The position numbers and the translations under genes are program-made. Shown here piece after piece: positions 12,653 to 53,327 of a DNA stretch of 57,814 nt. The notes beneath the pieces were generated by a model, which saw only the letters and a program-made list of their open reading frames with translations, was not told where the DNA came from and ran no database searches. The DNA is from Ignavibacterium sp. (lineage in GTDB: Bacteria > Zixibacteria > MSB-5A5 > GN15 > PGXB01). The stretch lies in NCBI GenBank assembly GCA_020724775.1, contig DYGG01000018.1:1-57814 (forward strand). The letters run 5' to 3'. How positions within the stretch are numbered: the stretch's first letter is position 1; the number at the start of each line of letters is the position of its first letter.

Positions 12653-13059
12653 CTTTTTACTCCTGCTATCAAGATAGATTAGCGCGGTCATAGGACCGGC
12701 CCGGGCAGTCATTTCCGCAGGTTTAAGTAGTTAGATAGAACTTTTTACGCAGGCGAGGCCCTTTTCGGCGAAAATAAATGGACTAATATTATCCATGTAA
12801 AAGTGGATAAGTACGGCGGGGATGGGGGGGGCGATTAAGTTTCACAAATTGCATCACCAATGGCTTATTGGAGATGCGCCAAATGGAGATTATAGGAGAG
12901 TGGGGCTGGCGTAATCATACTGGCGGCGATTAGCGTTATGGCATACTTGAACAGATTGCGCTTGGGAGTCATATGATTATTTCAAGCAATTATTGTCTTG
13001 CGCAGGCAAGACTCATGTTTGTATAATAATATTCAGCGCAGCAGAACACTTATCAACTT
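12653..13059. other. AT-rich intergenic region upstream of the two-gene module
   Basis: About 400 bp between the divergent oxidoreductase gene and the DUF6978-like gene. Apart from the promoter/palindrome listed separately near its right end, I see a G-run around 12820-12830 and no supported coding sequence. Base composition turns visibly more AT-rich here and stays so through the following two genes. Confidence 0.5.
12995..13027 (+). promoter_or_regulatory. Promoter with embedded palindrome (possible operator)
   Basis: TATAAT at 13022-13027 is a consensus -10. With an 18-bp spacer the -35 would be TTGCGC (12998-13003). A perfect 7-bp inverted repeat, GTCTTGC (12995-13001) / GCAAGAC (13006-13012), with a 4-nt centre covers the -35 and the first half of the spacer. 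That is where a repressor dimer would block RNA polymerase. The first gene starts 32 bp after the -10. Confidence 0.5.
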
Positions 13060-13545
13060 ATGAATGTTGTACTTACAGATATGGAGATTAGTCAGTTGGT
13101 ATCGGAAAAGAAGATTCTACCGATAAACTTCAAAGAACGAGTTCGTCTCGGGAGGGCAAAGAGAGGGCATAGGGAATGTGATATAGACATTAAGGGGGAA
13201 AACGGTGGAAATTATCGCCTGATATTAAGACAGAATGTGAGAAATACACTCGATTTCTCCGTTATATTGGGATACCAGTTGCCAAATTCAAACAGACTAT
13301 TCCGACTTCGAAGATATAATGGGAAACACGGCCACACAAATTTCGTTGAGAATGACAAGTTATACGATTTTCATGTACACTACGCAACTCAGAGATATCA
13401 AGAAGTGGGCAGCGATGAAGATGCATATGCTGAAGTGTCATCATTATATTTCAATATGGAATCAGCGTTACAATTAATGATAAGGGAGTGCAATTTCATT
13501 CCATCTGCTGAGGACCATCGACAAACCAGTCTGGATCTCATATGA
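13060..13545 (+). CDS. DUF6978-like hypothetical protein
   Basis: A 161-residue cytoplasmic protein with no signal peptide or membrane segment. From memory it resembles the DUF6978 family: a basic N-terminal half (RVRLGRAKRGHRECDIDI), then short strands (YRLILRQNVRNTLDFSVILGY) and a His-rich segment with GKHGHTNFVEN and YDFHVHYATQRYQEVG. The clustered His/Asn/Tyr residues could form a metal or nuclease-like active site, but this is inference. The stop overlaps the next start by 4 nt (ATGA), so the two are co-translated. No ribosome binding site is seen before the ATG at 13060. Both genes are more AT-rich than their surroundings, consistent with horizontal acquisition. The family assignment needs a profile search. 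Confidence 0.55.
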   Translation: MNVVLTDMEISQLVSEKKILPINFKERVRLGRAKRGHRECDIDIKGENGGNYRLILRQNVRNTLDFSVILGYQLPNSNRLFRLRRYNGKHGHTNFVENDKLYDFHVHYATQRYQEVGSDEDAYAEVSSLYFNMESALQLMIRECNFIPSAEDHRQTSLDLI

Positions 13546-14312
13546 ACTTACAGTCAATAGAGAGTTCTTTTAAGGATGCAGTTTGTCGCGAAATCCAATT
13601 GCGACCTGAGGGCATCGATAGATTTGTTGTGTTTAACCCATTTACATTCTCTGACGGCGACAATTTGACAATTGTCCTCAGGAAGAACCACAATCACTGG
13701 TTATTAACGGATGAAGGTCATACCCTGATGCATCTTACATATGCAATTGATGAGAAGGCCTTAACATCTGGCACGAGAATGCAGATTATAGACAATGCCC
13801 TTTCTATATACGGAATCACCGAAAATGAAGGCGAATTGATAATTCCAATAGAGAATGATCATTTCGGGGCGGCGCTGTTCAATTTTATTCAGGGATTGAT
13901 CCGAATTACTGACGTTTCATATTTCACGCGTGAACGAGTGAAATCTACTTTCTTGGAGGATTTTCGTGGGTTTATGTCAATGGTAGTGCCCGAAAATAGA
14001 AGGACTTTTGACTGGCACGACCCAGCGCATGATAGACAGGGTAACTATTCGGTGGACTGCCGCCTAAATGGAGGCACTCGGCAGCTATTTGTCTTCGCAC
14101 TTCCGAATGACGAAAAGACACGGGACGCGACGATATCGCTTCTTCAGTTTGAAAAGTGGGGACTTATTTTCGAATCACTTGCTATTTTTGAGGATCAAGA
14201 GAATATCAATAGAAAAGTCCTCGCAAGATTCAGCGATGTAGGCGGAAAGCAGTTCTCAAGTCTATTCGGGAATCAAGATAAGATCGAGAAATTCGTCAAT
14301 TCATATTTCTGA
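13542..14312 (+). CDS. DUF1828/DUF1829 domain protein
   Basis: A 256-residue soluble protein. Residues about 28-120 match what I know of DUF1828: FTFSDGDNLTIVLRKNHNH, then WLLTDEGHTLMHLTYAID, in which a conserved TD.G.TL.HL motif follows a D-G-D strand. The C-terminal part (about 150-256, including a GGTRQLFVFALPNDEKTRDA segment) fits DUF1829. These domains occur in mobile and phage-associated contexts and have no established biochemical role. The ATG overlaps the stop of the upstream gene by 4 nt, so the pair is a tightly coupled module. With the palindrome in the promoter, this arrangement is like toxin-antitoxin or small defence operons; that comparison is inference. Confidence 0.6.
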   Translation: MNLQSIESSFKDAVCREIQLRPEGIDRFVVFNPFTFSDGDNLTIVLRKNHNHWLLTDEGHTLMHLTYAIDEKALTSGTRMQIIDNALSIYGITENEGELIIPIENDHFGAALFNFIQGLIRITDVSYFTRERVKSTFLEDFRGFMSMVVPENRRTFDWHDPAHDRQGNYSVDCRLNGGTRQLFVFALPNDEKTRDATISLLQFEKWGLIFESLAIFEDQENINRKVLARFSDVGGKQFSSLFGNQDKIEKFVNSYF

Positions 14313-14434
14313 GTCTTCTCTCTCGCGGGACCAATGGTCTTGCTCATTCTAGGAATTTACTAATGACAAAATGGGGTGAAGCCAATTTCTCCTCTCTTTT
14401 CAACAGTGATGTTTTAAACACAACATCAATAAAA

Positions 14435-14570
14435 CCGGCGGGAGGGCTCCCGCCGGCGCTTGGGGCTATGAGGCGGAATTGCTCCGCCTCTATATTGAAA
14501 TCTGTGGAACGATATGTTTCTATTTCGTCAGGTCACATTCCGCCTGACGGCGGAACAAGACCCGACGAAA
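14435..14570. repeat. Cluster of three GC-rich hairpins
   Basis: Three perfect short palindromes lie in a row: CCGGCGGGAG/CTCCCGCCGG (14435-14456), GAGGCGGA/TCCGCCTC (14470-14490) and TTCCGCC/GGCGGAA (14538-14555). The third is nested in a larger inverted repeat, TTTCGTCAGGTC (14523-14534) against GACCCGACGAAA (14559-14570), with one mismatch. The remaining sequence of the gap 14313-14635 holds no supported gene. These look like dispersed REP-type elements, and they also separate convergent transcription units. Confidence 0.7.
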
Positions 14571-40580: not shown

Positions 40581-42977
40581 TCATAGCGGTGGCGGCGGGC
40601 CATCCTTGAACAGATAACTAATCAGATAGGTGGCATCAAGTATGTTTATACCGCCGCTGCCGTTGGCATCACCGGCATAAGCATCAGGAGCCGGTCCACC
40701 CTTGTACAGGAAACTGATAATATAGGTGGCGTCAAGGATGTTTATAACGCCGTTAGTGTTGGCGTCACCGCGCAGGTAATTAGCGATTATTATCTTCCCC
40801 CGTTTGAATGCCGGAGTGTAGGAATTGACTATGGAATAAAGTTGTACATGCGAGGTCGAAATTTCGGTGGTGTCTATCGTGATTACCTGCGGGCTGGGAA
40901 CAGATGACGCGGCAATGACATAGATGTTCAGAATGGCGCCGGTGCCGGGGTCGAGATAGTTAGAGCCGCTGGTGGTATTGGAGGTGAGCCGGAACCGAAA
41001 GCGGAGATTGGTCGGGTCGTAAGTCAGGGGGTTGACTTCCTGAAAATAAGAAGTCCGCAGACCGGTGACGGAGAAAGGATTGCTTACCCAGAGGTCAAGG
41101 TAGGTGGCATCGCTGAATTCTATCGGCAGCATCATCTGCTTAATCTGGAAGAAATTGGTCAGCCGTATCGGCACCTCTATGGTATCGCCGGGACGGGCGA
41201 CGATAGAGTCGATTTTCAGGGTATCCTGAATAACCATCACCAATCGCGGATAGGTTCTGGTGTGGGTTCCTTTCGGGACGGTGCCAGTCATGGATACATT
41301 ATACAAACCCCACTGAGTATAGGTATGGCTCGGATTCTGGTCTGTAGAAGAGCCGCCGTCACCGAAGTCCCAGAGCCAGGAAGGGGCGGTAACGGGGGAT
41401 ATATCGGTGAAGTTAACAGTCAATGGCGCCAGCCCGACAAGAACCGGTCCAGCGGTAAAATTCATATTTGGCAGGCTGGTCAAGGACGAGCAGACATTGA
41501 TTCTTCCCGAGCCGAGTTGTCCCGGATAGAAAGGATTATAGACATCAATATCGTCGGCATGATTCATGATAATAGTATCAATCTGCTCTTTGCGGAGATT
41601 CGGCATATGTGACTTGATGAGCGCGGCCAGGCCTGCCACATGTGGAGCCGCCATCGAAGTGCCGTCAAGATAGGCATAAACGGCGGAGCCATGATTGGAA
41701 TAGGTGTTGTAGATGCTTACACCGGGCGCGGAGACATCAATCCAAGCGCCATAGTTGGAAAAGGAGGCTTTGGCATCACCGGAAGAGGTCGCGGCGACAG
41801 AGAGCGAAACGGGATAACCGTTATAACTGTAATAATCAAGAAAATCGGACTGGCTGTTGTCATCGTTGCCGGCGGCGTGCGTTATGACGACGCCGGAGTC
41901 GTTGGCGCGGTTGCAGGCGGTCCGCATAGCCGGAGTGTCGGCAGCGCCCCAACTGGCATTGATGACACAGGCGCCCATTCGGGCGGCATAGTCGATGGCG
42001 GTGGCGCAGTTGGCGGTATTGACATAACCGGTCTCATATCCGCCGTTGGGATTAACCCCGGAACCGCCGACCCGAAGGCACATAATCCTGGCGCCGGCAT
42101 AAGTCCCCAGTCCTCCCCCCCAGCCGCCGGCTAAGCCGGCGACTCCGGTGGAATTATTGGTCGTGGCGCCCGCAATACCGGCACAGTGGGTACCGTGGCC
42201 GTTGTAGTCGGTCGGGTTATTATCGGGTGTCCCGCAATCTTCGCCGGTCCAGCAGGTGACCCCGCTAAAACCGCTAAAGAAATCATAGCCAATCAGGTCA
42301 TCGATGACACCGTTACCATCATCGTCAATCGCATTGATATCTTCGGAATCAAAAACCACCATATCGCCATCAATATCCTCTCCGGGATTGACCCAGATTT
42401 TATCTTTCAAGTCGGGATGCGTGAAAAGCACGCCGCTGTCGATGATGGCAATTTTGGCGGTATCGGTGCTTTTCTGGATATCCCATCCGGCCGGCGACAT
42501 CGTTTTCGGCGGCGCCCACTGCATACCATAATACTGGTCATTAGGCACAGCCCGCACCGGAATCGCCCAGACAGGAGAAACGGTCTTAATATTGGGATTC
42601 TGCCGCAACTCGCTTATTATAGAATTGATATCCGCGGCTTCGTCAAAAAAGAGTTCAAAGAATTTGGACATATCATCGTCGCCGTAGAGGGCATCAGCCC
42701 CCTGCCGCCAGGGGAACATGGCGATCGCTTCCCGAACCTGATATTTGCTGAAGACTTGGTCGAGCGACGGGACTCCGAGACTGAGTGTCCCGAACCCTTT
42801 TGCCATTGTCTTCGTATTGACATTTTTTTCAAATTGAACTTCCAGCCGACCCGGCATCAAAATCGGCTTATTATCACCCTGCAGGTCATAGGTTCTTCCC
42901 TGCGCGGGCGAGATTGTGAGCAGCAGCGCCAACAAAAGGAAAGTAATAACCCCGGGAAATCCATACCGGTGGTTCAT
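40581..42977 (-). CDS. Subtilisin-like protease with PKD, cohesin-like and dockerin domains
   Basis: A secreted 798-residue S8 serine protease. A signal peptide ([17 protein letters not shown]) and a propeptide-like region precede the catalytic domain with triad D180 ([15 protein letters not shown]), H261 ([11 protein letters not shown]) and S441 ([17 protein letters not shown]). It is followed by a PKD domain (about 505-580, [11 protein letters not shown]), a cohesin-like sandwich (about 587-735, beginning [15 protein letters not shown]) and a C-terminal two-repeat dockerin ([18 protein letters not shown] and [18 protein letters not shown]). ATG 42977 has AGAGAGG at good spacing; an upstream frame extension to 43040 is not used. 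Carrying both a cohesin-like and a dockerin domain, it could link into an extracellular complex. Confidence 0.9.
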
Positions 42978-43291
42978 AGTTGCCTCTCTTTGCAAATTAA
43001 TAAAATATCTCTTATCGCAAGTCATCATATCGCAAATCAAATGTTTTCAATGTCATAGAATAGAACCGCCTCTAACTCTCATCGGTTCGCTCAATTATTA
43101 ATTTTCATAACTTTGTTATCGGTCAAAATCACAGCATTTCCATGGCGGCGGTGTGAGGTACTGTCTCCCCCCGGTAAACTTGCCCCTTTTTTAGCCCTAG
43201 TTTCAATCTCATTAATACAGGAATCCCGCCTTGCGGCGGGATTCCTGATTGAAGCATCACTGACTTCCGTAGTCAGCGAGTTTTCTGACAA
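42978..43291. other. Intergenic region with hairpin element
   Basis: About 310 bp. Contains the 13-bp hairpin listed at 43218-43247 and AT-rich sequence (42990-43110) that probably holds the protease promoter; no -35/-10 pair stands out. No gene recognised. Confidence 0.5.
43218..43247 (-). terminator. Hairpin, probable terminator or dispersed repeat
   Basis: CAGGAATCCCGCC (43218-43230) and GGCGGGATTCCTG (43235-43247) form a perfect 13-bp stem with a 4-nt loop, 45 nt beyond the stop of the minus-strand dockerin gene. There is no long U-run, and the GGCGGGATTCC core resembles the hairpins near 14470, so it may be a mobile hairpin repeat serving as a terminator. Confidence 0.6.
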
Positions 43292-46200
43292 TTACGGTCC
43301 GCAAACCGGAGCCGGTCCGCCCTTGAAGCGGTAAGCAATGATAAATGTAGCATCAAGAATGTTGATGGTACCGTTACCATTGGCGTCAGCCTCCTGCAAG
43401 CATCCCGGAGCCGGGCCACCCTTGAAGCGATAAGCAATGATGTAAGTCGCGTCAAGAATGTTCACGGTGCCGTTGTTGTTGGCATCGCCAGGCAGGTTGC
43501 AGCAGTTGCCGCTGATGGTAATCTGAATGGTCTCTTCATCCCATCCTTTGCCATCAGTGACATAGAAGGTGACATTGTAGGTTCCGACAACCGGGGTCGG
43601 CCAGTTGAAAGTCCTGGTGCCAGCCGTAAAGGTAGCGCCGGCAGGAACGCCCAACGCCGAGTAGGTCAGAACGTCATTCTCAATATCGGTGGCCGGACCA
43701 ATCGTAAAGTTCAGAGCCGCGGTGGTAGTCCCGCTCTTGTTGCCGATAGCCGGCAGAACCGGCGGCCAGTTGATATACTTGGGAGCCGGGAAGGAAATGG
43801 CATGGCCCGCGAAGTTGAAGATGCTCGGACGAGCCGCAATCCAGGCTTTCGCTTTATCAATGGTCGCCTGCAGACCGGCGGCGCCGCCGTTATACTCGGT
43901 CGCCAAGATCTTGACAAATACCAGAGTATCGTTCGCGCCCAGGTCTCTCTGCGGGGTATAGAGGGCACACATATTCAGGTCAACATAGACAGACTCGGGG
44001 TCTGCTATGTTCGGAGTCCAGTTCTCATAGCCGGAGAAAGTCCGCAGTTTGTTGTACAGAATACCGGGCTTGAAGGAACCGGTTCCATCCTGCCAGTACG
44101 GGTTGTGGCCCGTGAAGATACCACGAACGTTGTCGAAATCATCGCCAACGCCGGTGTAAGGCTTCTTGTAACCGTCAACATAAGCGAAACCGCCCATACG
44201 CATATCCTGGTCAACGCAGTTGTTGGTCAGAAGAGCCTGCGCCGTGTCGTCATGGACTTCTTCGCCGAAGCAGTACATCAACTGACGGCTGAAGTCGAAA
44301 CCGGAACTGTTGTCAACAGCAGTATCAGAGGGGACATCCCAGTCCATCATCTCACCGACCATAACGCCGGTGATGGTGGCGCCGGTACGGTTGAAGTAAC
44401 GGACCGCCTGAATGATGAAGGACGCGGAATCGGCATGTTTGGATGCCCAGTACTGCGACTGCGCACCAATAGCGGAATCCTTGGAATAGTAGGTTCCGGT
44501 ATAACCCCAGGAATAATCCGGATAGGTCGTGGAATCGACCACAATCACGGTCTCCACCGGACGCCATCCGTCGCCACCGAGCCAGTCGGCATCCCACATG
44601 TAGGAATTAAGGACAGTATCGGTGCCTTTCAGGCGAATAATATACGGGGAGGCATCATAGAGATAAATCTTGGCGTTGGCATTGGCGCCGGTGATGTTGT
44701 TGGAGGTGTCGCAATCATTGAAGAAGTTCATGCACCAGCCATCTTCACCGCCGCGGCCCATGTTACCGGCATTGTTGAAATAGACTCTCTTATTGGCGGT
44801 GCGAATCTCCGCCCATTTCGGACGGGAGAGTTCGGAAGCGACAATAAGATGAATCCGCATCGTGTCGGGGCTGCCGAAGAAGTTACCGGCAAAGATGAGC
44901 AAGCCTTCAAAAGCATGCGGGCCGGTATTGATGGCGCCACCCTTGTTCAACTGCACCGTCATATTATGGAAGTTATTCGGGAGCAGGTGAGAAACGGTGG
45001 TCGGAGTGTTGGTCACGCCAAGCCAGTCGAAATTGGTCCCGGTCAGTTTCACCGCCGTGACGCTGGAGATGGTCATGGAGGCGTTACCGACGTTCTCAAC
45101 CTTCACGACGGTGTCTTTCTGGACACCAGGGAGAGTAAAGGTCGGGTCGTCAACATCGCTGGGCGAAAGAGCCAAAACCGGGTTCGGAACCGGGTTCACG
45201 CAGGGGACTCGGAACCAGCGCATCGGGTTTACAGTCCAGACTCCGGCATCCTGCACGGCACCGCCAGGATATCTGTCATTAACATAGAAGACATCCATAT
45301 ACTTATTGCCGGCATAGGAGCCAGAGGGGTCAACGATGGTCACACCGGTAAAGTTGCCGGTGGTTGTCATACCGAAGCGGGAAATCGAGGGCCACATATC
45401 AGACTCGCAACGAGGAGCCAATCCAATGGTGTCGCAACGAGGAGTATAGGTATTGGTCAGGTTGCGGGCGATATCCCAGTTCAAACCGCTGTTGTCGGAA
45501 ACGGAAATATAAAGTTCGCCGTTTGCCGTTCCGCTGGAGTTATTAGCCGTCCAGTTGGAAATATGGCAGTCGTCATCGATGCCGTTTCTAATGTCATTGA
45601 ACTGGACAAACATGGCATAAAACTTACCATCGCACTCCGACAACTGCATCTTCACGATCGACATTTCATTCCAGGCGCCGCCGTAGCAGCCGTCTTCCGG
45701 AAGATCCCAGTTGGCATCCTTAACGGTACTGATAAGGTTCGGATACTGCTCGGTCCAGTGGAAGAGACGGCAGCCGAAGAAATGCTGGAAGAGGCCATTG
45801 GCCGCTTCACGGGCATTCCAGATGACATGGAGATAATTGTCGGTGCCCATGAGAGCGGAGACGTCCGTGTGCGCCAGCCAGCCGGTGGTAGTAGTATCAA
45901 ACTTGGATATGTTGATAGTATTTCCCCAAGTGGCACCGGCGTCGTTGGAAATCTTGCAGAAGACGTCGTTGGCTCTCTGTCCCATATCGCGCCAGAGAGT
46001 GTCGCCGGGAACTATCGGATAGCCGCCAAACCAGACGAGAGCAACCTTTCCGGTGGTCCGGGAAGCGGTCACCGTCTGGGCGATATCCTGAACACCGCCG
46101 ATGAAGAGCGGCGGATAGTCCCATTCGCCGGCTTCGAAACTGCCAACGCGACGGAAATACATGATATTCTGCACGGCGCCCGCGGCGTCTTTTGACTGCT

Positions 46201-46954
46201 GGGCGAAAACGTGCGTAATAGTGTCATTGTTATAAATCTGGAACTCAATATAGGGCCAGATATACTCGTAATCGCCCATGGCGTCGAATACATACTGAGC
46301 CACTGAGTCCGGAACGCGATAGCGATAAGCGCCGAAGAAGCAGGAGGCGATGTCATAGTCGAACCAGACCGTCGCCTGGAACGGCGGAGTCTCGCCCTGG
46401 TCATGGTGATTACCGATAACCGCCCGGCCATCCGGTGCTACATCAAGACAGTAATAACCGGAATAGTTGTTACCGGAACCGAGACGGGGGTGCACATCGC
46501 AACCGCCGCCTGCTGAGGCGCCGAAATGGATAAATGTTCCCGGAGTCTGGGTACCGTCCCAAACTTCATATCCACCGCCGCGGTCGCCACCAATTATCGT
46601 ATTGACCTGTTTCATCCAGAGGAAGTGAACCATCTGGGGACCGCGCCAGTCAACGTGACGGCCCATACGACCATTATGCTGATAGTCATAGGTCGTGGTG
46701 CCGATCTGGAGACCGGGAGAGGCTGACGGAATCTGGTCAAAACCGAGAGACTGTCCCACGTCTTTGGTAACGGTCGCGCCAAAGACACGCTCGCCACCGA
46801 CCAGTGCGGCCGGCGGGACTTTGTCTATCGGCTTAACGTTCAAATGACGGAGATATTCTCTTTCAGCTCTCTTATCGGCGGCGAAGGATGAACCGGCCAG
46901 AAAAGCAACAATTAACAAGGAGATAAGAAAGATCGCCGATAATTTCCTTGTCAT
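43292..46954 (-). CDS. Large secreted dockerin protein
   Basis: A 1220-residue exported protein. ATG 46954 follows AAAGGAGCACAG and starts a signal peptide (IFLISLLIVAFLAGSSFAA). The N-terminal roughly 560 residues contain sialidase/BNR-like propeller strands (VWDGTQTPGTFIHFGASAGG, KISNDAGATWGNTINISKF, ISVSDNSGLNWDIARNL). A choice-of-anchor/ASPM-type Ig segment follows (TLPGVQKDTVVKVENVG), then a roughly 380-residue unrecognised region, one putative-Ig (He_PIG-like) domain (LPAIGNKSGTTTAALNFTIG) and a C-terminal two-repeat dockerin ([37 protein letters not shown]). No catalytic residues are recognised. Probably a structural or binding component of the extracellular complex. Confidence 0.85.
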   Translation of the reverse strand: MTRKLSAIFLISLLIVAFLAGSSFAADKRAEREYLRHLNVKPIDKVPPAALVGGERVFGATVTKDVGQSLGFDQIPSASPGLQIGTTTYDYQHNGRMGRHVDWRGPQMVHFLWMKQVNTIIGGDRGGGYEVWDGTQTPGTFIHFGASAGGGCDVHPRLGSGNNYSGYYCLDVAPDGRAVIGNHHDQGETPPFQATVWFDYDIASCFFGAYRYRVPDSVAQYVFDAMGDYEYIWPYIEFQIYNNDTITHVFAQQSKDAAGAVQNIMYFRRVGSFEAGEWDYPPLFIGGVQDIAQTVTASRTTGKVALVWFGGYPIVPGDTLWRDMGQRANDVFCKISNDAGATWGNTINISKFDTTTTGWLAHTDVSALMGTDNYLHVIWNAREAANGLFQHFFGCRLFHWTEQYPNLISTVKDANWDLPEDGCYGGAWNEMSIVKMQLSECDGKFYAMFVQFNDIRNGIDDDCHISNWTANNSSGTANGELYISVSDNSGLNWDIARNLTNTYTPRCDTIGLAPRCESDMWPSISRFGMTTTGNFTGVTIVDPSGSYAGNKYMDVFYVNDRYPGGAVQDAGVWTVNPMRWFRVPCVNPVPNPVLALSPSDVDDPTFTLPGVQKDTVVKVENVGNASMTISSVTAVKLTGTNFDWLGVTNTPTTVSHLLPNNFHNMTVQLNKGGAINTGPHAFEGLLIFAGNFFGSPDTMRIHLIVASELSRPKWAEIRTANKRVYFNNAGNMGRGGEDGWCMNFFNDCDTSNNITGANANAKIYLYDASPYIIRLKGTDTVLNSYMWDADWLGGDGWRPVETVIVVDSTTYPDYSWGYTGTYYSKDSAIGAQSQYWASKHADSASFIIQAVRYFNRTGATITGVMVGEMMDWDVPSDTAVDNSSGFDFSRQLMYCFGEEVHDDTAQALLTNNCVDQDMRMGGFAYVDGYKKPYTGVGDDFDNVRGIFTGHNPYWQDGTGSFKPGILYNKLRTFSGYENWTPNIADPESVYVDLNMCALYTPQRDLGANDTLVFVKILATEYNGGAAGLQATIDKAKAWIAARPSIFNFAGHAISFPAPKYINWPPVLPAIGNKSGTTTAALNFTIGPATDIENDVLTYSALGVPAGATFTAGTRTFNWPTPVVGTYNVTFYVTDGKGWDEETIQITISGNCCNLPGDANNNGTVNILDATYIIAYRFKGGPAPGCLQEADANGNGTINILDATFIIAYRFKGGPAPVCGP

Positions 46955-47056
46955 TTCTGTGCTCCTTTCAAAAAGATTAAAAGTTCCCAACTTATTCCCT
47001 AAATCTATTCCCATGGTCGATTTTGAACAAATTTAGGTCTTTTCAAAAAAGTCATT

Positions 47057-47097
47057 CAGTTTCGTCGACTCGAAACTGCCAGACAATGTTGCGTCTG
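47057..47097 (-). promoter_or_regulatory. Twin hairpins in a long 5' leader
   Basis: On the minus strand, a stem CAGAC/GTCTG (47097-47080) is followed directly by a perfect 8-bp stem CAGTTTCG/CGAAACTG (47078-47057), and 10 nt later by a TTTTTT run (about 47050-47045). This lies about 100 nt upstream of the ATG of the dockerin gene. The second hairpin plus U-run looks like an attenuator or the terminator of a short leader RNA. No known riboswitch class was recognised. Confidence 0.4.
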
Positions 47098-47476
47098 TCA
47101 CCTCCCTTCCAAACACCTTATCACGGTCATAGGCATAAGGGACAAAAGTTTGAAACTACAAACGACCTATTCGTTTACAATTCGAGGCGTTATTCACGCC
47201 GATGCTGAAGTAATTTAGTCAATGGTATTACTACACAAGCGAAAGCCAAAGATTCGGCTTTGAAACATCCTACCCAACAAAGCAATTGCCGAACTTATTC
47301 AGCAAGCGAGTTAAAGAAGTAAGACCTTTGGAAGGTCAAATTTTCCCTATTATCCAAAAACTCAGTAGCGTCTTAATAATAAAAATCAAGAGGCGGTTTG
47401 TCAAGCCTTTTTGGCGGTTGCGCAGAAAAAAATTCTGAATGGAAGTTGCGAGATTGCAGCAGGTTATAAAAAAAGA

Positions 47477-47494
47477 GCCTCGCCGGAGCGAGGC
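47477..47494 (-). terminator. Rho-independent terminator
   Basis: Stem GCCTCGC (47477-47483) / GCGAGGC (47488-47494), loop CGGA; on the minus strand it is followed by CTCTTTTTTTATAA. It is 23 nt past the stop of the 1936-residue gene and closes the surface-protein operon. Confidence 0.9.
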
Positions 47495-47516
47495 CCTTTA
47501 TCACCGAGAGATATGG

Positions 47517-50500
47517 TTATCTTTCAGGCGGGGGTGGACCCTGCTTGTAGAAGTAATTCAGAAGATAAGTAGGGTCGCGGATGTCGATATTGCCGTCAAA
47601 GTTGATATCGGCCGCTTCAATTGATGCCGGGGGACGGCCTCCCTTGTACAAGTAGTTGAACAGAAACACCATATCGGAGAGGTCGAGGAGATTGTCCGAA
47701 TTGGCGTCGCCCCGCAAAAATTCCACGACAGTGTAGGTAGTGATGGTCGTGTCGGCCAGTCCCAGCGGGTCGGTGACGATAAAGGTCACCTGATAACTGT
47801 TGCCGACTTCAGACGGCGGCGCCACAATCTGGTACGTTGCCGACCCGTTGCCGGAATCAGTGAAGGTGGCAAAGGAGAGAATCGGGCTGGCAGTTATTAC
47901 TAACGTACTTAGGTCAGGGTCAACCGCCCGCAGAAGCGAGGAATGGAACTGGTTGACAATAACCGGTTGAGTGCTGGGAGGGACAGTAGTAAAATATGGG
48001 GTCTGGTTGCCGGCCTCTATAACGGTAATATTAACCAGTTCGGTATCGGCTCTGGAGCCGTCGCTGGCAACAAATCCGACTTGATATACCCCGGCCTGAG
48101 CAAAACTCGGCGTGAAATTGAAGGTCTTGACATCAGGCGCCGCGCCAGAGAAAGTGGCATTAGCCGGCAGATTGTAAGCCGAGAGGGTTGGACGGGTGCC
48201 GTCACCGTCCGAGGCGCTCACGATAAAGGTGAGGTTATTTCCTTCAATTACGGAGCGGTCCCCGATAGGAATGATGACCGGAGGCTGGTTGCCATTATAA
48301 ACTAAGAACTGAGTTGGCGGAGTAACTGCCAGAGAATATTCGACGGCAGTTGGGAACCTTGAATCCCAGACTATCCACTGAACATTATAGAAATTGGGAT
48401 TGAGATTACCCTGAGTATAATCTGGAATGAATCGGCAAGTAAACCATAAGGTATCGGCAGTAGTGTAACTGCTGGTATCCATATTAGGTACCAGTTGATA
48501 AGTGGGAGTGTTCAAACGCACAAGTGGAGTTGTTCTGTCGGGGTCAACAGCAATAAATCTGAATATCAGAGTATCCCCTTCTATTCCTGAGAGGTCGTTA
48601 CCTGCAACAGTCCTAAATATTGGCGCCAGATTAGTATCCCTCACCACAATATTGACGAAGTGTGAATCGTAGAGAGCAGGATTAATGGCGTCACGGGCAA
48701 AGAAGAGAACCTGATAGTTTCCAGCGTCGAAATTGTCAGTCTGCCAACTGAATACCCCCGAGCCGTTGTTGTTGTCGGTGAAAGTGGCGCCGGTGGGAAG
48801 ACCGGTGGCGCTGAGGTCAGGGGTATCGAGGTCCGGGTCGGTGGCATTGATGGTAAAGGTCAAGAGTCGCATCTCGGTGGTAGCGGTATCAGTAAATGCA
48901 GTCGTGATAACCGGCGGCTGATTGCCGGCTTCTTCCACAATCAGAGTCACGTTAATCGAATCGAGATAGACGCCGTCAGAGGCGATAATCAGGACAATAT
49001 ATGTTCCAGCCTGGACAAAGGAGGGGTTGAAAGTCAAGGTACCGGTGCCATCGCCGTTGTCGGCAAAGGTGGCGTTGGTCGGGAGGTCCTGCGCGGATAA
49101 GGTAATACCGATCTGGTCCGGGTCGCTGGCGGTCACGGTGGTTACCAGAGTCTGCCCTTCGGTTACAGTCTGGGGCGGAACCGGGTCAATAACCGGCGGC
49201 TGATTGCCGGCGTCGGCAACCTGTATGATTACCGGCTGGCTACGGGTGGCATCAATACCGTCATAGGCTTCAAACCTGACCTGGTGTAACCCGGCCTGGA
49301 CGTAGTTGGGCATGAAGGTAAAGAGACCGCTGCCGTTGCCGCTGTCCACGAAACTGGAGTTGGGCGGCGCGACCACAGTTCTGAGGATGACCGGTTGCCC
49401 ATCCGGGTCAGCCGCCCGAATGAGCATTTCGAGAGTGTCCCCTTCGACCGTGATGCCGTATTGCGGGAGCAGGGTAAAGACCGGGGAAATATTCTGCGCT
49501 ACGACGGTAATCGGGACATCGCGGAATCCGGCCAGCGGAGGAACGCCCTGGTCGGTGGCGATGAAGCGGACGGTGTAAGCGCCGGGCTGGGTGTTGTCCG
49601 GAGTGAAAGAGAAAGTGCCGGTGCTGTTGCCGTTATCGACAAAGGAGGCATTTGCCGGAAGCCCTGTGGCCGACATAAAGATGCGTGCGTTCGGGTTGGG
49701 GGCGGTCAAATCACGCGCCACCACCGTAAAGGTAAGGGTTCGTCCGACGCGGATGCCGAAAGGTCCTACGGAATCTATGGCCGGGGGCTGGTTGACTTCG
49801 ATAATGGTCAGGGTCATGGTGTCGGACGCGGTCAGGCGCGGGAGTCCGTTGTCGCTGGCAAAGAACCTGATATCGTGAATGCCGGCATCAAAGAAATCAG
49901 AGACAAAGGTGAAGACGGCGACGCCGTTGCCGCTATCGACAAAGTTGTAACCGGTCAACGAGGTGGAGACGCTGAACGAAATAGGGGTTGCCTCCGGGTC
50001 GGTGGCAGTGACGACTACTTCAAAGGTATTCCCTTCGTAGATGGAAGTATTGCTGACCGGACTTATGGTCGGCGGCTGGTTCCCCGGTTCCGTAACGGTA
50101 ATGGTCACCTGCTCGGAGTCAGCCAAGGTGCCATCAGATGCTATGAAGAGGACCAGATAGATACCGGCCTGAGTGAAATCGGGGCTGAAATTAAAGGTGC
50201 CGGTGCCATTGAGATTGTCGATGAAAGTGGCGTTGAGCGGCAGATTTTCGGCGGTCAGAGCCGGCGTGGTGCCGTCGAGGTCGGAAGCGTTGACGCCAAA
50301 ACTGAGCACGGCTCCTTCAGCAATCGTGCGCGGTCCGATAGCGGCAAGAACCGGCGGCTGGTTGCCGGCATCTGTCACGGTAATCGTAACCAGTTCGGAG
50401 TCGGAGTCGATGCCGTCGGAGGCATAAAAATTGATGTTGTAGATGCCGCTCTGGGTGAAAGTCGGCGTCCAGTTGAAAGTGCCGGTGCCGTTCCCGTTAT

Positions 50501-53327
50501 TGGTAAAAGTGGCGCCGGTCGGGAGTGCCGATGTGGTCAATAGAGGAATGACGTTATCGGCATCAGTAGCCGTGACCACAAAATTAAGGTTGAGATTTTC
50601 GGTGGTGGAGCGAGGTCCAATGGTCGCCAGCACCGGCGGCTGGTTGATATTGACCACAGTTATAGAGACGAGCTCGGAATCTACAAGGATTCCGTCAAAT
50701 GCCTTGAAAGTAACAAGGTAAACTCCGGCCTGGGTGTAATCGGGATTGAAGTTGAAGAGACCGGTGCCGTCGAGATTATCGGTAAAGGTGGCATTGGGCG
50801 GCGTGCCGGTAGCAGAGAGAGTCGGAACGGGGCCGTCCAGGTCAAAGCCGGAAATAGTGAAATTCAGATTAGCCGCTTCATTGACTGTCTGAGGTCCGAT
50901 AGGATTAAGCACCGGAGCCTGATTGCCGGATTCATTGACGGTAATTGAAACGATTTCGGAATCTATTTCGACGCCGTCAGAGGCATAGAAAGTTACGGTG
51001 TATAAACCGGACTGGGTGAAATCAGGAGTCCAGTCAAAAGTTCCAGTGCCGTTGCCGTTATCGACAAAGGTAGCACCGGTCGGCAGGGCGGAAGTAGATA
51101 GCACCGGGATGGTGATATCGGGGTCAGTGGCGCTGACTGCGAAATTGAGATTGGCTCCTTCGGTAGTGGAGCGCGGCCCGATTGCCGCCAGCACCGGTGG
51201 ACGGTTGACATTGGTCACAGTTATACTGACAATTTCGGAATCAGCCAGGGCGCCATCGGAGGCGATGAAGGTTACCTGATAGATTCCGGCCTGAGTGAAA
51301 TCGGGATTGAAGTTGAAAGTGCCGGTGCCGTTGCCGTTATCAGTGAAAGTGGCATTGGCCGGGGTATTGACAGCCGAGAGCGCCGGGACAGTCAGGTCGG
51401 CGTCGGTAGCGCTGATATTGAAATTCAGATTCGCACCTTCGGCAACAGTCCGGGGACCGATAGCCGCCAGCACCGGGGCCTGATTGCCGGCATCATTGAC
51501 CGTTATGGTCACCCGTTCCGAATCAGTATCGACTCCGTCGGAGGCGTAGAAGGTAATATTGTAAATACCGCTCTGGGTGAAATCGGGGGTCCAGTTGAAC
51601 GTTCCGGTGCCGGTGCCGTTGTCGGTGAAGGTGGCTCCGGTCGGCAGCGGTGTCGAAGTGGTCAGCGTCGGCGTAACGCCATCGGCATCGGTGGCGGAGA
51701 CATTGAAATTGAGATTGGTATTCTCATTGACCAGCCGCGATCCGATAGCCGCCAGCACCGGCGGCTGATTGACATTATTGACGGTGATGACCACCTGCTC
51801 GGAATCGGTATCGACTCCATCCGAGGCATAGAAAGTGACATTATATGTGTTGGCTTGAGTGAAGGTCGGAGTCCAGTTGAATGTACCGCTGTTGTTGCCG
51901 TTATCGGTGAAAGTAGCGCCTGTCGGCAGCGGACTGGATGTCGTAAGAGTGAGAGCAACGCCGTCGGCGTCGGTAGCAGTCACAGTGAAATTCAGATTGA
52001 CGCCTTCGTTGACCGAGCGGGGACCGATAGTCGCCATTACCGGCAGTTGATTGACGTTGTTAACGGTAATAACCACCTGCTCGGAGTCGGTATCGATACC
52101 ATCGGTGGCGTAGAAGGTGATATTGTAAATTGCCGCCTGCGTGAATGTCGGTGTCCAGTTGAAAGTGCCGGTGTTGTTGCCGTTGTCGGTGAAGGCGGCG
52201 CCGGCGGGACGGGCGGAAGTGGAGAGTGTCAAAGTGGTGCCGTCGGCATCGGTAGCGGTCACAGTGAAACTCAGATTGACGCCTTCATTGACCGAGCGGG
52301 GACCGATAGTCGCCAGCACCGGGGCGGCATTAGCGATATAAGTGAACGCCCCGACCAGCGCATTGGAAGCCAGAGCGGAGGCGGTATTGGTGACGGTCAC
52401 GTTGACGGTGCCGGTTCCGGCCGGGGTGGTTGCTGTCAGACGGTACGGGGAAACATAGGTTCCGGCGACAGGAGTGCTGCCGAAGGTTACTGTGGTTCCG
52501 CCCGGGTCAAACCCGGAACCGTTTATGGTGACAAGCGTGCCGCCGGTGTTGACACCGGAGGTCGGATTGATTGATGCCAGGGTCGGCGCCAGGACATTGG
52601 TGGCACTCACTGTCAGGATTGACGAATGCGGTCCCAGAATCCCGGAGCCATTCTGGGCGATAATGAGATATTCGTATGACGATACGCCGTCACTGGTGGC
52701 ATCGACAAAGAAACTGTCGATAACGCCAGGATTCGCCAGTGAGCCGGTCGGGTCATCGATTCTGAAAAAAGACCCGCCCGAGGTTGCAATCCTTCGGTAG
52801 ATGTGATAGGTCAGTCCGGCGACCCTATTCCAGCGCAAAAGTATTCGTGAACTGGAAAGGGCGAAGCCGTTCAGTCCGCCGGGGGCGGCGGGCCATGACA
52901 CCGGCGCCAGAACTATATCTTCCTGCTGGAAAGAATTGTTGGGAATGGTCTTGGACAACACAAACCCTTCGCCGTTGGCGATATTATAGAAATGGTAATC
53001 GTACGGGTTTCCGGGCGCTTCGGTCAGATAATTCTGAAAATCATCAAACCAGAATCCGGCGTCGTATCCGGCGCCGGTGCTGGTTTCGACGCGCAGTTCT
53101 TCATCGGTATTATCCAGATATCCGTAGAAACTGATCTCGCCGTTGGCGGGAGTACTGGCATTGGAATTAGTAACCGTGCCGAAGATAGATCCCTGAGCAA
53201 AAGCGGATGTAGCGCTCAGCATTATTCCTGCCGCCAGTAAGGCCGTGACTAACGGCCATTTTATATGGCGTTTATTCCTACGCACTTTGCAACCTCCGTC
53301 TATATCAATATTTCTTTTTGTCGTCAT
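47517..53327 (-). CDS. Giant secreted Ig/cadherin-like repeat protein with dockerin
   Basis: A 1936-residue exported protein. Signal region about 24-45 (PLVTALLAAGIMLSATSAFA), with a long basic n-region before it. Next come a fibronectin-III-like segment, an IPT/TIG domain (INPTSGVNTGGTLVTINGSG) and 16 tandem putative-Ig (He_PIG/cadherin-like) repeats of about 90-95 residues, each beginning like NQPPVLAAIGPRSVNEG and containing GTFNWTPDFTQ and YNITFYASDG. It ends in a dockerin (RGDANSDNLLDLSDMVFLF, ADINFDGNIDIRDPTYLL). Such rods extend from the surface or bridge cells. Start ATG at 53327 with GGAAGGAAC. The stop of the upstream giant gene is only 15 nt away, so they are co-transcribed; a terminator follows. 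Confidence 0.92.
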   Translation of the reverse strand: MTTKRNIDIDGGCKVRRNKRHIKWPLVTALLAAGIMLSATSAFAQGSIFGTVTNSNASTPANGEISFYGYLDNTDEELRVETSTGAGYDAGFWFDDFQNYLTEAPGNPYDYHFYNIANGEGFVLSKTIPNNSFQQEDIVLAPVSWPAAPGGLNGFALSSSRILLRWNRVAGLTYHIYRRIATSGGSFFRIDDPTGSLANPGVIDSFFVDATSDGVSSYEYLIIAQNGSGILGPHSSILTVSATNVLAPTLASINPTSGVNTGGTLVTINGSGFDPGGTTVTFGSTPVAGTYVSPYRLTATTPAGTGTVNVTVTNTASALASNALVGAFTYIANAAPVLATIGPRSVNEGVNLSFTVTATDADGTTLTLSTSARPAGAAFTDNGNNTGTFNWTPTFTQAAIYNITFYATDGIDTDSEQVVITVNNVNQLPVMATIGPRSVNEGVNLNFTVTATDADGVALTLTTSSPLPTGATFTDNGNNSGTFNWTPTFTQANTYNVTFYASDGVDTDSEQVVITVNNVNQPPVLAAIGSRLVNENTNLNFNVSATDADGVTPTLTTSTPLPTGATFTDNGTGTGTFNWTPDFTQSGIYNITFYASDGVDTDSERVTITVNDAGNQAPVLAAIGPRTVAEGANLNFNISATDADLTVPALSAVNTPANATFTDNGNGTGTFNFNPDFTQAGIYQVTFIASDGALADSEIVSITVTNVNRPPVLAAIGPRSTTEGANLNFAVSATDPDITIPVLSTSALPTGATFVDNGNGTGTFDWTPDFTQSGLYTVTFYASDGVEIDSEIVSITVNESGNQAPVLNPIGPQTVNEAANLNFTISGFDLDGPVPTLSATGTPPNATFTDNLDGTGLFNFNPDYTQAGVYLVTFKAFDGILVDSELVSITVVNINQPPVLATIGPRSTTENLNLNFVVTATDADNVIPLLTTSALPTGATFTNNGNGTGTFNWTPTFTQSGIYNINFYASDGIDSDSELVTITVTDAGNQPPVLAAIGPRTIAEGAVLSFGVNASDLDGTTPALTAENLPLNATFIDNLNGTGTFNFSPDFTQAGIYLVLFIASDGTLADSEQVTITVTEPGNQPPTISPVSNTSIYEGNTFEVVVTATDPEATPISFSVSTSLTGYNFVDSGNGVAVFTFVSDFFDAGIHDIRFFASDNGLPRLTASDTMTLTIIEVNQPPAIDSVGPFGIRVGRTLTFTVVARDLTAPNPNARIFMSATGLPANASFVDNGNSTGTFSFTPDNTQPGAYTVRFIATDQGVPPLAGFRDVPITVVAQNISPVFTLLPQYGITVEGDTLEMLIRAADPDGQPVILRTVVAPPNSSFVDSGNGSGLFTFMPNYVQAGLHQVRFEAYDGIDATRSQPVIIQVADAGNQPPVIDPVPPQTVTEGQTLVTTVTASDPDQIGITLSAQDLPTNATFADNGDGTGTLTFNPSFVQAGTYIVLIIASDGVYLDSINVTLIVEEAGNQPPVITTAFTDTATTEMRLLTFTINATDPDLDTPDLSATGLPTGATFTDNNNGSGVFSWQTDNFDAGNYQVLFFARDAINPALYDSHFVNIVVRDTNLAPIFRTVAGNDLSGIEGDTLIFRFIAVDPDRTTPLVRLNTPTYQLVPNMDTSSYTTADTLWFTCRFIPDYTQGNLNPNFYNVQWIVWDSRFPTAVEYSLAVTPPTQFLVYNGNQPPVIIPIGDRSVIEGNNLTFIVSASDGDGTRPTLSAYNLPANATFSGAAPDVKTFNFTPSFAQAGVYQVGFVASDGSRADTELVNITVIEAGNQTPYFTTVPPSTQPVIVNQFHSSLLRAVDPDLSTLVITASPILSFATFTDSGNGSATYQIVAPPSEVGNSYQVTFIVTDPLGLADTTITTYTVVEFLRGDANSDNLLDLSDMVFLFNYLYKGGRPPASIEAADINFDGNIDIRDPTYLLNYFYKQGPPPPER
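47960..52340 (-). repeat. 16 coding tandem repeats (Ig/cadherin-like)
   Basis: DNA-level tandem repetition of roughly 280 bp caused by the 16 domain repeats of the 1936-residue protein. Repeats 1-8, the amino-terminal ones at the high-coordinate end, are most alike (GPRSVNEG-type openings), and repeats 9-16 diverge. This suggests recent expansion of the N-terminal half. Boundaries are approximate. Confidence 0.85.

What the first reader, a model, noticed from the sequence alone, without database searches (positions are those of the whole stretch)
12995..14312. AT-rich two-gene module with operator-like promoter: candidate TA or defence system
Two small soluble genes overlap by ATGA, are compositionally distinct from both flanks, match (from memory) DUF6978 and DUF1828/DUF1829 families without known function, and sit between REP-like hairpins and an unrelated metabolic gene. 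Their promoter contains a perfect palindrome. Compact size, coupling, composition and autoregulation-type control together fit a toxin-antitoxin or anti-phage pair.
Basis: inference. Interest (0 to 1): 0.65.

Follow-up and report, generated by a model that had tools for sequence, protein, structure and literature searches.

The report
Mobile two-gene defence-linked toxin-like cassette
A recently inserted pair of small genes belongs to a travelling cassette that, in bacteria and archaea of 27 phyla, repeatedly sits inside virus-defence operons and whose first gene was never found without the second, so it is probably an anti-virus toxin and its keeper, although no activity has been tested.

Summary
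Genes A (13060-13545, 161 aa) and B (13542-14312, 256 aa) overlap by ATGA. They lie in a ~1.6-kb AT-rich insertion (about 12834-14428) that a same-genus genome lacks. B is DUF1828. A is a diverged DUF6978: the window copy scores nothing, but 25 of 55 relatives do. PADLOC lists DUF6978+DUF1828 as an untested phage-defence candidate (PDC-M24), so the basic pairing is known.

New here:
1. The subfamily spans 27 phyla, including archaea. A lies directly upstream of B in 70 of 80 genome loci fetched with B.
2. In at least 30 of 80 loci it sits inside methylation-based defence operons: brxC-A-B-pglX, hmaA-A-B-hmaB, hsdS-A-B-hsdR, res-A-B-mod.
3. In separate searches of 85 Poribacteria genomes, all 30 full-length A have B beside them; 16-18 of 47 full-length B lack an intact A.
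4. A has a confident predicted fold without a PDB match and invariant R/H/N/T/Q residues. B weakly resembles a chaperone fold plus a PD-(D/E)XK-like domain.

Best reading: A is a toxic effector held by B, an abortive-infection module like TA pairs or PrrC. The "operator palindrome" is not supported. No toxicity or phage protection has been shown.

The parts
12834..14428 (.). Inserted segment (~1.6 kb) holding the module; edges approximate to a few bases
   Evidence: Absent from same-genus genome G077, where the same flanking genes are ~390 nt apart
13060..13545 (+). Gene A, 161 aa, diverged DUF6978 (PDC-M24A-like); proposed toxic effector
   Evidence: ORF; phrog_27326 6.4e-23; family link to PF22398; AF2 pLDDT 92
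13312..13401 (+). Codons of A residues 85-114, the conserved cluster R85, H90, H92, N94, H105, H107, T110, Q114
   Evidence: R85, H92, N94, H105, H107, T110, Q114 invariant and H90 98% in 56 homologues
13542..14312 (+). Gene B, 256 aa, DUF1828 (PDC-M24B-like); proposed keeper/antitoxin and sensor
   Evidence: PF08861 3.4e-26; PDC-M24B 3.3e-20; phrog_5059 5.8e-31
13542..13545 (+). ATGA overlap of A stop and B start (translational coupling)
   Evidence: Sequence; spacing -4 to +3 nt in 48 of 66 relatives
13638..13907 (+). DUF1828 domain of B (residues 33-122); weak resemblance to a secretion-chaperone fold
   Evidence: Pfam; Foldseek InvB prob 0.97-0.98, E 0.010-0.016
13992..14309 (+). C-terminal half of B (residues 151-256); weak resemblance to PD-(D/E)XK fold, probably without activity
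   Evidence: Foldseek E 0.01-0.5 only; D172 97% conserved, (D/E)-X-K not kept in wider relatives
12995..13012 (.). Inverted repeat GTCTTGC-GCAG-GCAAGAC, the claimed operator; probably chance
   Evidence: 4-7% in shuffles; 52 of 56 relatives have none
13022..13027 (+). Plausible -10 box TATAAT; -35 (TTGCGC, 12998-13003) is weak
   Evidence: Sequence; not reported by the consensus scan

Best explanation
A-B is a horizontally moving toxin-antitoxin-like abortive-infection cassette. SHOWN here: two coupled genes that travel and diverge together, an insertion between two ordinary genes in this genome, repeated recruitment of the family into methylation-based defence operons and temperate phages, and A never found without B. 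INFERRED: A is the effector, an enzyme (perhaps a nuclease) acting through its invariant Arg/His/Asn/Thr/Gln cluster. B binds A and keeps it inactive. Infection disturbs this (loss of B, or B's C-terminal domain sensing nucleic acid or a blocked partner system) and frees A, which stops the cell. Inside R-M or BREX operons the cassette would be a back-up device like PrrC. In this window it stands alone, so B alone must restrain A.
For: A is adjacent to B in 70 of 80 loci found with B alone, over 27 phyla; A and B distances correlate, Mantel r 0.86. Empty site in a sister genome. Embedded between genes of BREX (8 loci), Hma (7), type I R-M (11) and type III R-M (4), recruited repeatedly. Temperate phages carry it behind cI. 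All 30 full-length A have B; of 47 full-length B, 29 have full A, 11 none, 7 a fragment, 2 of those at contig ends; the same tendency in Acidobacteriota. The one A beside a frameshifted B has itself lost its second HxH motif. Invariant polar cluster in A. DUF1829, which follows DUF1828 in canonical B, is part of the partner protein of the HipA-like kinase in the phage-protecting pair HipAD (PMC13092281).
Against: No toxicity, neutralisation or phage protection measured. No known toxin fold matched by A. The gene order toxin-first is the rarer one in TA operons (own knowledge). B without A is common in R-M operons, so B may have a role of its own. No conserved operator. The genome counts come from related genomes, so they are not independent.
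Confidence: 0.5

Rival explanations
1. A-B is an accessory regulator or recruitment module of methylation-based defence (for example balancing modification and restriction, or recognising unmodified DNA) and is not toxic itself.
For: Same-strand position inside operons that all contain a DNA methyltransferase; B's weak PD-(D/E)XK resemblance suggests nucleic-acid contact; B kept without A in R-M operons.
Against: About half of the loci, this window included, show no defence neighbour; the window's genome has no type I methylase. Phage lysogeny regions carry the pair without R-M genes in view. It does not explain why A needs B but not the reverse.
Confidence: 0.2
2. B is the effector (a PD-(D/E)XK-like nuclease) and A its regulator or immunity protein, in the usual antitoxin-first order.
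For: Weak fold resemblance of B's C-terminal half to Can2, VC1899, SfsA, RecU, Hjc, HincII; in one relative this half is replaced by an HSDR_N domain; within the subfamily D172...D190-x-K/R192 could be a degenerate signature.
Against: The signature is lost in canonical and phage relatives. Intact B survives without A in 11 to 16 loci of one phylum while A is never alone, the opposite of what a toxic B predicts.
Confidence: 0.12
3. A phage-borne superinfection-exclusion or immunity pair left behind as a cellular remnant, with no present function in this genome.
For: Relatives sit next to cI in Pseudomonas phages and near integrase and superinfection-exclusion genes in Lj965, and in Staphylococcus, Streptococcus and haloarchaeal viruses.
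Against: No other phage gene or integrase in the insertion; both frames intact with conserved residues kept; insertion into cellular defence operons is frequent.
Confidence: 0.1

Closest known systems
PADLOC PDC-M24 (PDC-M24A = DUF6978, PDC-M24B = DUF1828), a phage-defence candidate
   Same: Same two families in the same order and spacing; B matches PDC-M24B at 3.3e-20
   Different: The window's A does not reach PDC-M24A and B has no detectable DUF1829; a diverged subfamily with its own invariant residues. PDC-M24 is untested and no paper on it was found
HipAD / DS-6 (HipA-like kinase + DUF3037-DUF1829 protein; PMC13092281)
   Same: Two-gene phage-defence pair whose second protein carries DUF1829, the usual neighbour domain of DUF1828
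   Different: The effector is a kinase, A is not; DUF1829 is not detected in the window's B
PrrC anticodon nuclease in type I R-M operons (PMC2610378)
   Same: A suspected toxic device placed inside an R-M operon
   Different: PrrC is an ABC-type anticodon nuclease silenced by the R-M enzyme itself; A-B is unrelated in sequence, has its own partner B, occurs in four kinds of system and also alone
Type II toxin-antitoxin systems
   Same: Compact coupled pair, mobility, one-way dependence of A on B
   Different: No known toxin fold, no recognised DNA-binding antitoxin domain, no conserved operator, toxicity untested

Membership tests
PADLOC PDC-M24 / DUF6978+DUF1828 pair | Second gene matches DUF1828 / PDC-M24B | tested here: met
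   PF08861 3.4e-26 (cut-off 22 bits, score 91.8); PDC-M24B 3.3e-20
PADLOC PDC-M24 / DUF6978+DUF1828 pair | First gene matches DUF6978 / PDC-M24A | tested here: inconclusive
   Window copy: no hit; 25 of 56 subfamily members hit PF22398 at E<=0.01, best 1.6e-9; profile comparison with two canonical members was too thin to decide
PADLOC PDC-M24 / DUF6978+DUF1828 pair | The two genes adjacent, same strand | tested here: met
   ATGA overlap; 70 of 80 relatives
Toxin-antitoxin system | Two small genes in one operon | tested here: met
Toxin-antitoxin system | Toxin gene not kept without the antitoxin gene | tested here: met
   30 of 30 full-length A with B; 11 full-length B without A; relatedness of genomes not corrected
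Toxin-antitoxin system | One product toxic, the other neutralises it | not testable with these tools
   Needs expression experiments
Toxin-antitoxin system | Autoregulation at an operator palindrome | tested here: not met
   Repeat at chance level and absent in 52 of 56 relatives; a frequent, not obligatory, feature
Anti-phage defence system | Association with other defence genes | tested here: met
   At least 30 of 80 relatives inside defence operons; not in this window
Anti-phage defence system | Protects against phage | not testable with these tools
   Needs plating assays
PD-(D/E)XK nuclease superfamily (B, C-terminal half) | Fold and conserved D...(D/E)-X-K | tested here: inconclusive
   Foldseek E 0.01-0.5; D172 kept, (D/E)-X-K not kept in the wider family
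HipAD | HipA-like kinase partner and DUF3037-DUF1829 protein | tested here: not met
   No kinase, DUF3037 or DUF1829 match in A or B

The most novel reading that the evidence does not exclude
A-B is a portable 'guard' that plugs into four unrelated methylation-based immune systems (BREX, Hma, type I and type III R-M) at the same kind of slot, monitors them, and arrests or kills the cell through a new enzyme fold (A) when a phage disables them; solitary copies work as stand-alone abortive infection.
Probability: 0.25. Interest if true: 0.82.

Novelty: new variant of a known kind. Interest (0 to 1): 0.58.

Why it matters
DUF6978/DUF1828 is listed only as an untested defence candidate and almost nothing is published on either family. 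Two facts make its role directly testable: A was found only with B, and the same cassette is spliced into BREX, Hma, type I and type III operons in many phyla. If A is toxic and B its keeper, this would be a widespread effector with a new fold and a general add-on to methylation-based immunity, comparable to PrrC but not tied to one system.

Tried and rejected
- A-B gene fusions: open frames near 430 aa looked like fusions, but searches show separate ORFs (stops are read through); the L045 'fusion' is likewise an artefact.
- Operator palindrome: chance-level and not conserved.
- Hairpin as part of the module: it is also in the empty-site genome.
- Sequence search of the PDB: A nothing; B only E 0.012 to a CRISPR-associated protein, not used.
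- BFVD fold search of A: one uncharacterised phage protein, TM 0.55, E 0.015.
- Plasmids: no relatives by tblastn.
- Viral-contig scans with canonical DUF6978 and DUF1828 proteins found nothing; hhalign with two canonical DUF6978 sequences was too thin.
- Housekeeping role: against it, B is in only 4 of 132 genomes of the phylum and absent from a sister genome.
- The impression that A is broken more often, in loci fetched with B as bait, was rechecked with separate A and B searches of the same genomes.

Full report
WHAT IS THERE. The window carries two overlapping genes on the + strand: A (13060-13545, 161 aa) and B (13542-14312, 256 aa), joined by ATGA. The stretch has 39-44% GC, the flanking genes about 50-60%. 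The neighbours are ordinary minus-strand genes, a berberine-type FAD oxidase and a UDP-glucose/GDP-mannose dehydrogenase. B is single-copy in the genome.

IT IS AN INSERTION. A same-genus genome (G077) has the same two flanking genes, 93% and 97% identical, in the same order but only about 390 nt apart. Aligned, the flanks match up to about 12833 and again from about 14429. The ~1.6 kb with A and B is absent and about 20 unrelated bases stand in its place. The strong hairpin at 14435-14456 is in both genomes and so belongs to the flank. No integrase, transposase or convincing flanking direct repeat was seen, so the route of entry is unknown, and loss in G077 instead of gain here is not strictly excluded; composition and rarity (B in 4 of 132 genomes of the phylum) favour gain.

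WHAT THE PROTEINS ARE. B is a DUF1828 protein (PF08861, 3.4e-26) and matches PADLOC's PDC-M24B (3.3e-20). A hits no Pfam, NCBIfam or PADLOC model, only phrog_27326 (6.4e-23). Relatives bridge the gap: 25 of 56 members of the A alignment reach DUF6978 at E<=0.01, and a Pseudomonas phage A reaches both PF22398 and PDC-M24A. 'PDC' means phage-defence candidate (PMC11514479). No paper on PDC-M24 was found and almost none on the DUFs.

THE PAIR IS A CONSERVED UNIT. A scan of 84,980 species genomes with B alone returned 80 loci in 27 named phyla, including Methanobacteriota and Woesearchaeota, at 45-62% identity. Seventy have A directly upstream, with spacing of -4 to +3 nt in 48 of 66 measurable cases. 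A and B distances correlate (Mantel r 0.86). Scanning viral contigs with A returned two loci, both with B. Three Pseudomonas aeruginosa phages carry A-B just downstream of cI (seen in L002 and L003; matches). Lactobacillus prophage Lj965 carries the canonical pair between its repressor region and superinfection-exclusion/integrase genes. Staphylococcus and Streptococcus phages and a haloarchaeal virus carry DUF1828 relatives.

IT IS SPLICED INTO DEFENCE OPERONS. Recurrent neighbours of the 80 loci are mostly defence genes. Eight loci have A-B in BREX operons, typically BrxC-A-B-PglX (one with only an A remnant). Seven read HmaA-A-B-HmaB or similar. Eleven lie in type I R-M operons, HsdM-HsdS-(A)-B-(AAA or Schlafen-like)-HsdR-YgjP. 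Four read Res-(A)-B-Mod; a few more are looser. L041 lies beside MADS-like genes. This is at least 30 of 80, a lower bound because many contigs end near the genes. I assigned the systems from PADLOC and Pfam hits of representatives and from sequence clusters, not by scanning every gene, and I ran no genome-wide background control. All four systems use DNA methyltransferases. On the B tree the system labels need about 21 changes; well-supported branches alone force at least three changes for type I R-M and two each for BREX and Hma, so recruitment happened repeatedly. The window copy is solitary and its genome has no PF02384 methylase, the type I kind.

ONE-WAY DEPENDENCE. Loci fetched with B favour intact B, so I searched the same 85 Poribacteria-phylum genomes separately with the A and B profiles. 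All 30 full-length A genes have B beside them (one of these B keeps only its N-terminal half, joined to an HSDR_N domain). Of 47 full-length B genes, 29 have a full-length A, 11 have none and 7 have only a fragment, 2 of those at contig ends. In the one locus where A stands beside a frameshifted B, that A has lost its second HxH motif. In 396 Acidobacteriota genomes every A again has B beside it (in one case split into two frames), while several B have no detectable A, though some of those A may be too diverged to detect. This is the pattern a toxin (A) and its keeper (B) would leave. Genomes within a phylum are related, so the sign-test values (0.0004-0.004) are indicative only.

STRUCTURE. 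A folds confidently (pLDDT 92, pTM 0.86): an N-terminal helix, long antiparallel strands and a C-terminal helix. Foldseek finds no PDB match (best TM about 0.27). R57, R85, H92, N94, H105, H107, T110 and Q114 are invariant in 56 proteins whose relatives are 36-52% identical to the window's A, which looks like an active site; the chemistry is unknown. B (pLDDT 89.8, pTM 0.54) gives weak matches only: to the secretion chaperone InvB, and to PD-(D/E)XK enzymes; which half matches which is my reading of the domain lengths. The (D/E)-X-K signature is not conserved across the wider family. I read B as a partner-binding domain plus a nucleic-acid-related domain, with low confidence.

OPERATOR CLAIM. 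The inverted repeat at 12995-13012 has 7-bp arms around a non-palindromic GCAG. Shuffled sequence gives one as good in 4-7% of cases and 52 of 56 relatives have none. A -10 box TATAAT (13022-13027) is plausible, the -35 weak, and the consensus scan does not list it. Autoregulation is not supported.

HOW IT PROBABLY WORKS. Most likely A is a toxic effector restrained by B and released during infection, giving abortive infection. In R-M operons it sits where PrrC, which is silenced by a linked type I enzyme (PMC2610378), sits in its own operon (the exact prrC position is from my own knowledge). DUF1829, which follows DUF1828 in canonical B proteins, is part of the partner protein of the HipA-like kinase in the phage-protecting pair HipAD (PMC13092281). 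Shown: the unit, its mobility, its defence context, the one-way dependence. Inferred: toxicity, neutralisation, trigger, target.

NOVELTY. The DUF6978-DUF1828 pairing is a listed candidate. The diverged subfamily, its repeated embedding in four methylation-based systems and the A-needs-B pattern were not found in the literature held. I rate it a new variant of a known kind.

Noticed in passing
genome G000, contigs C72, C4, C54, C66, C55, C79, C49, C75, C17 and others: The window's own 3.1-Mb genome has 17 matches over the cut-off to the DNA methylase family PF01555 on more than ten contigs but none to PF02384; an unusually large set of N6/N4 methyltransferases.
   Followed up: no
L122 579-1535 (- strand), genome G216: A B protein whose N-terminal DUF1828 half is joined to an HSDR_N (type I restriction) domain in place of the usual C-terminal half.
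   Followed up: partly
L007 / L010 (genome G045, same order as the window's): A relative of the window's organism carries the canonical DUF6978 + DUF1828-DUF1829 pair between housekeeping genes, so both subtypes circulate in this group.
   Followed up: partly
L053, L054, L057, L088-L091, L094, L095: The slot between hsdS (or brxC) and the next core gene also holds Schlafen AlbA_2 and OLD/AAA-type proteins, as if it were a general accessory slot.
   Followed up: partly
window 40581-53327 (- strand): Large surface or secreted proteins with bacterial Ig, PKD and subtilase domains ending in dockerin type I domains.
   Followed up: no
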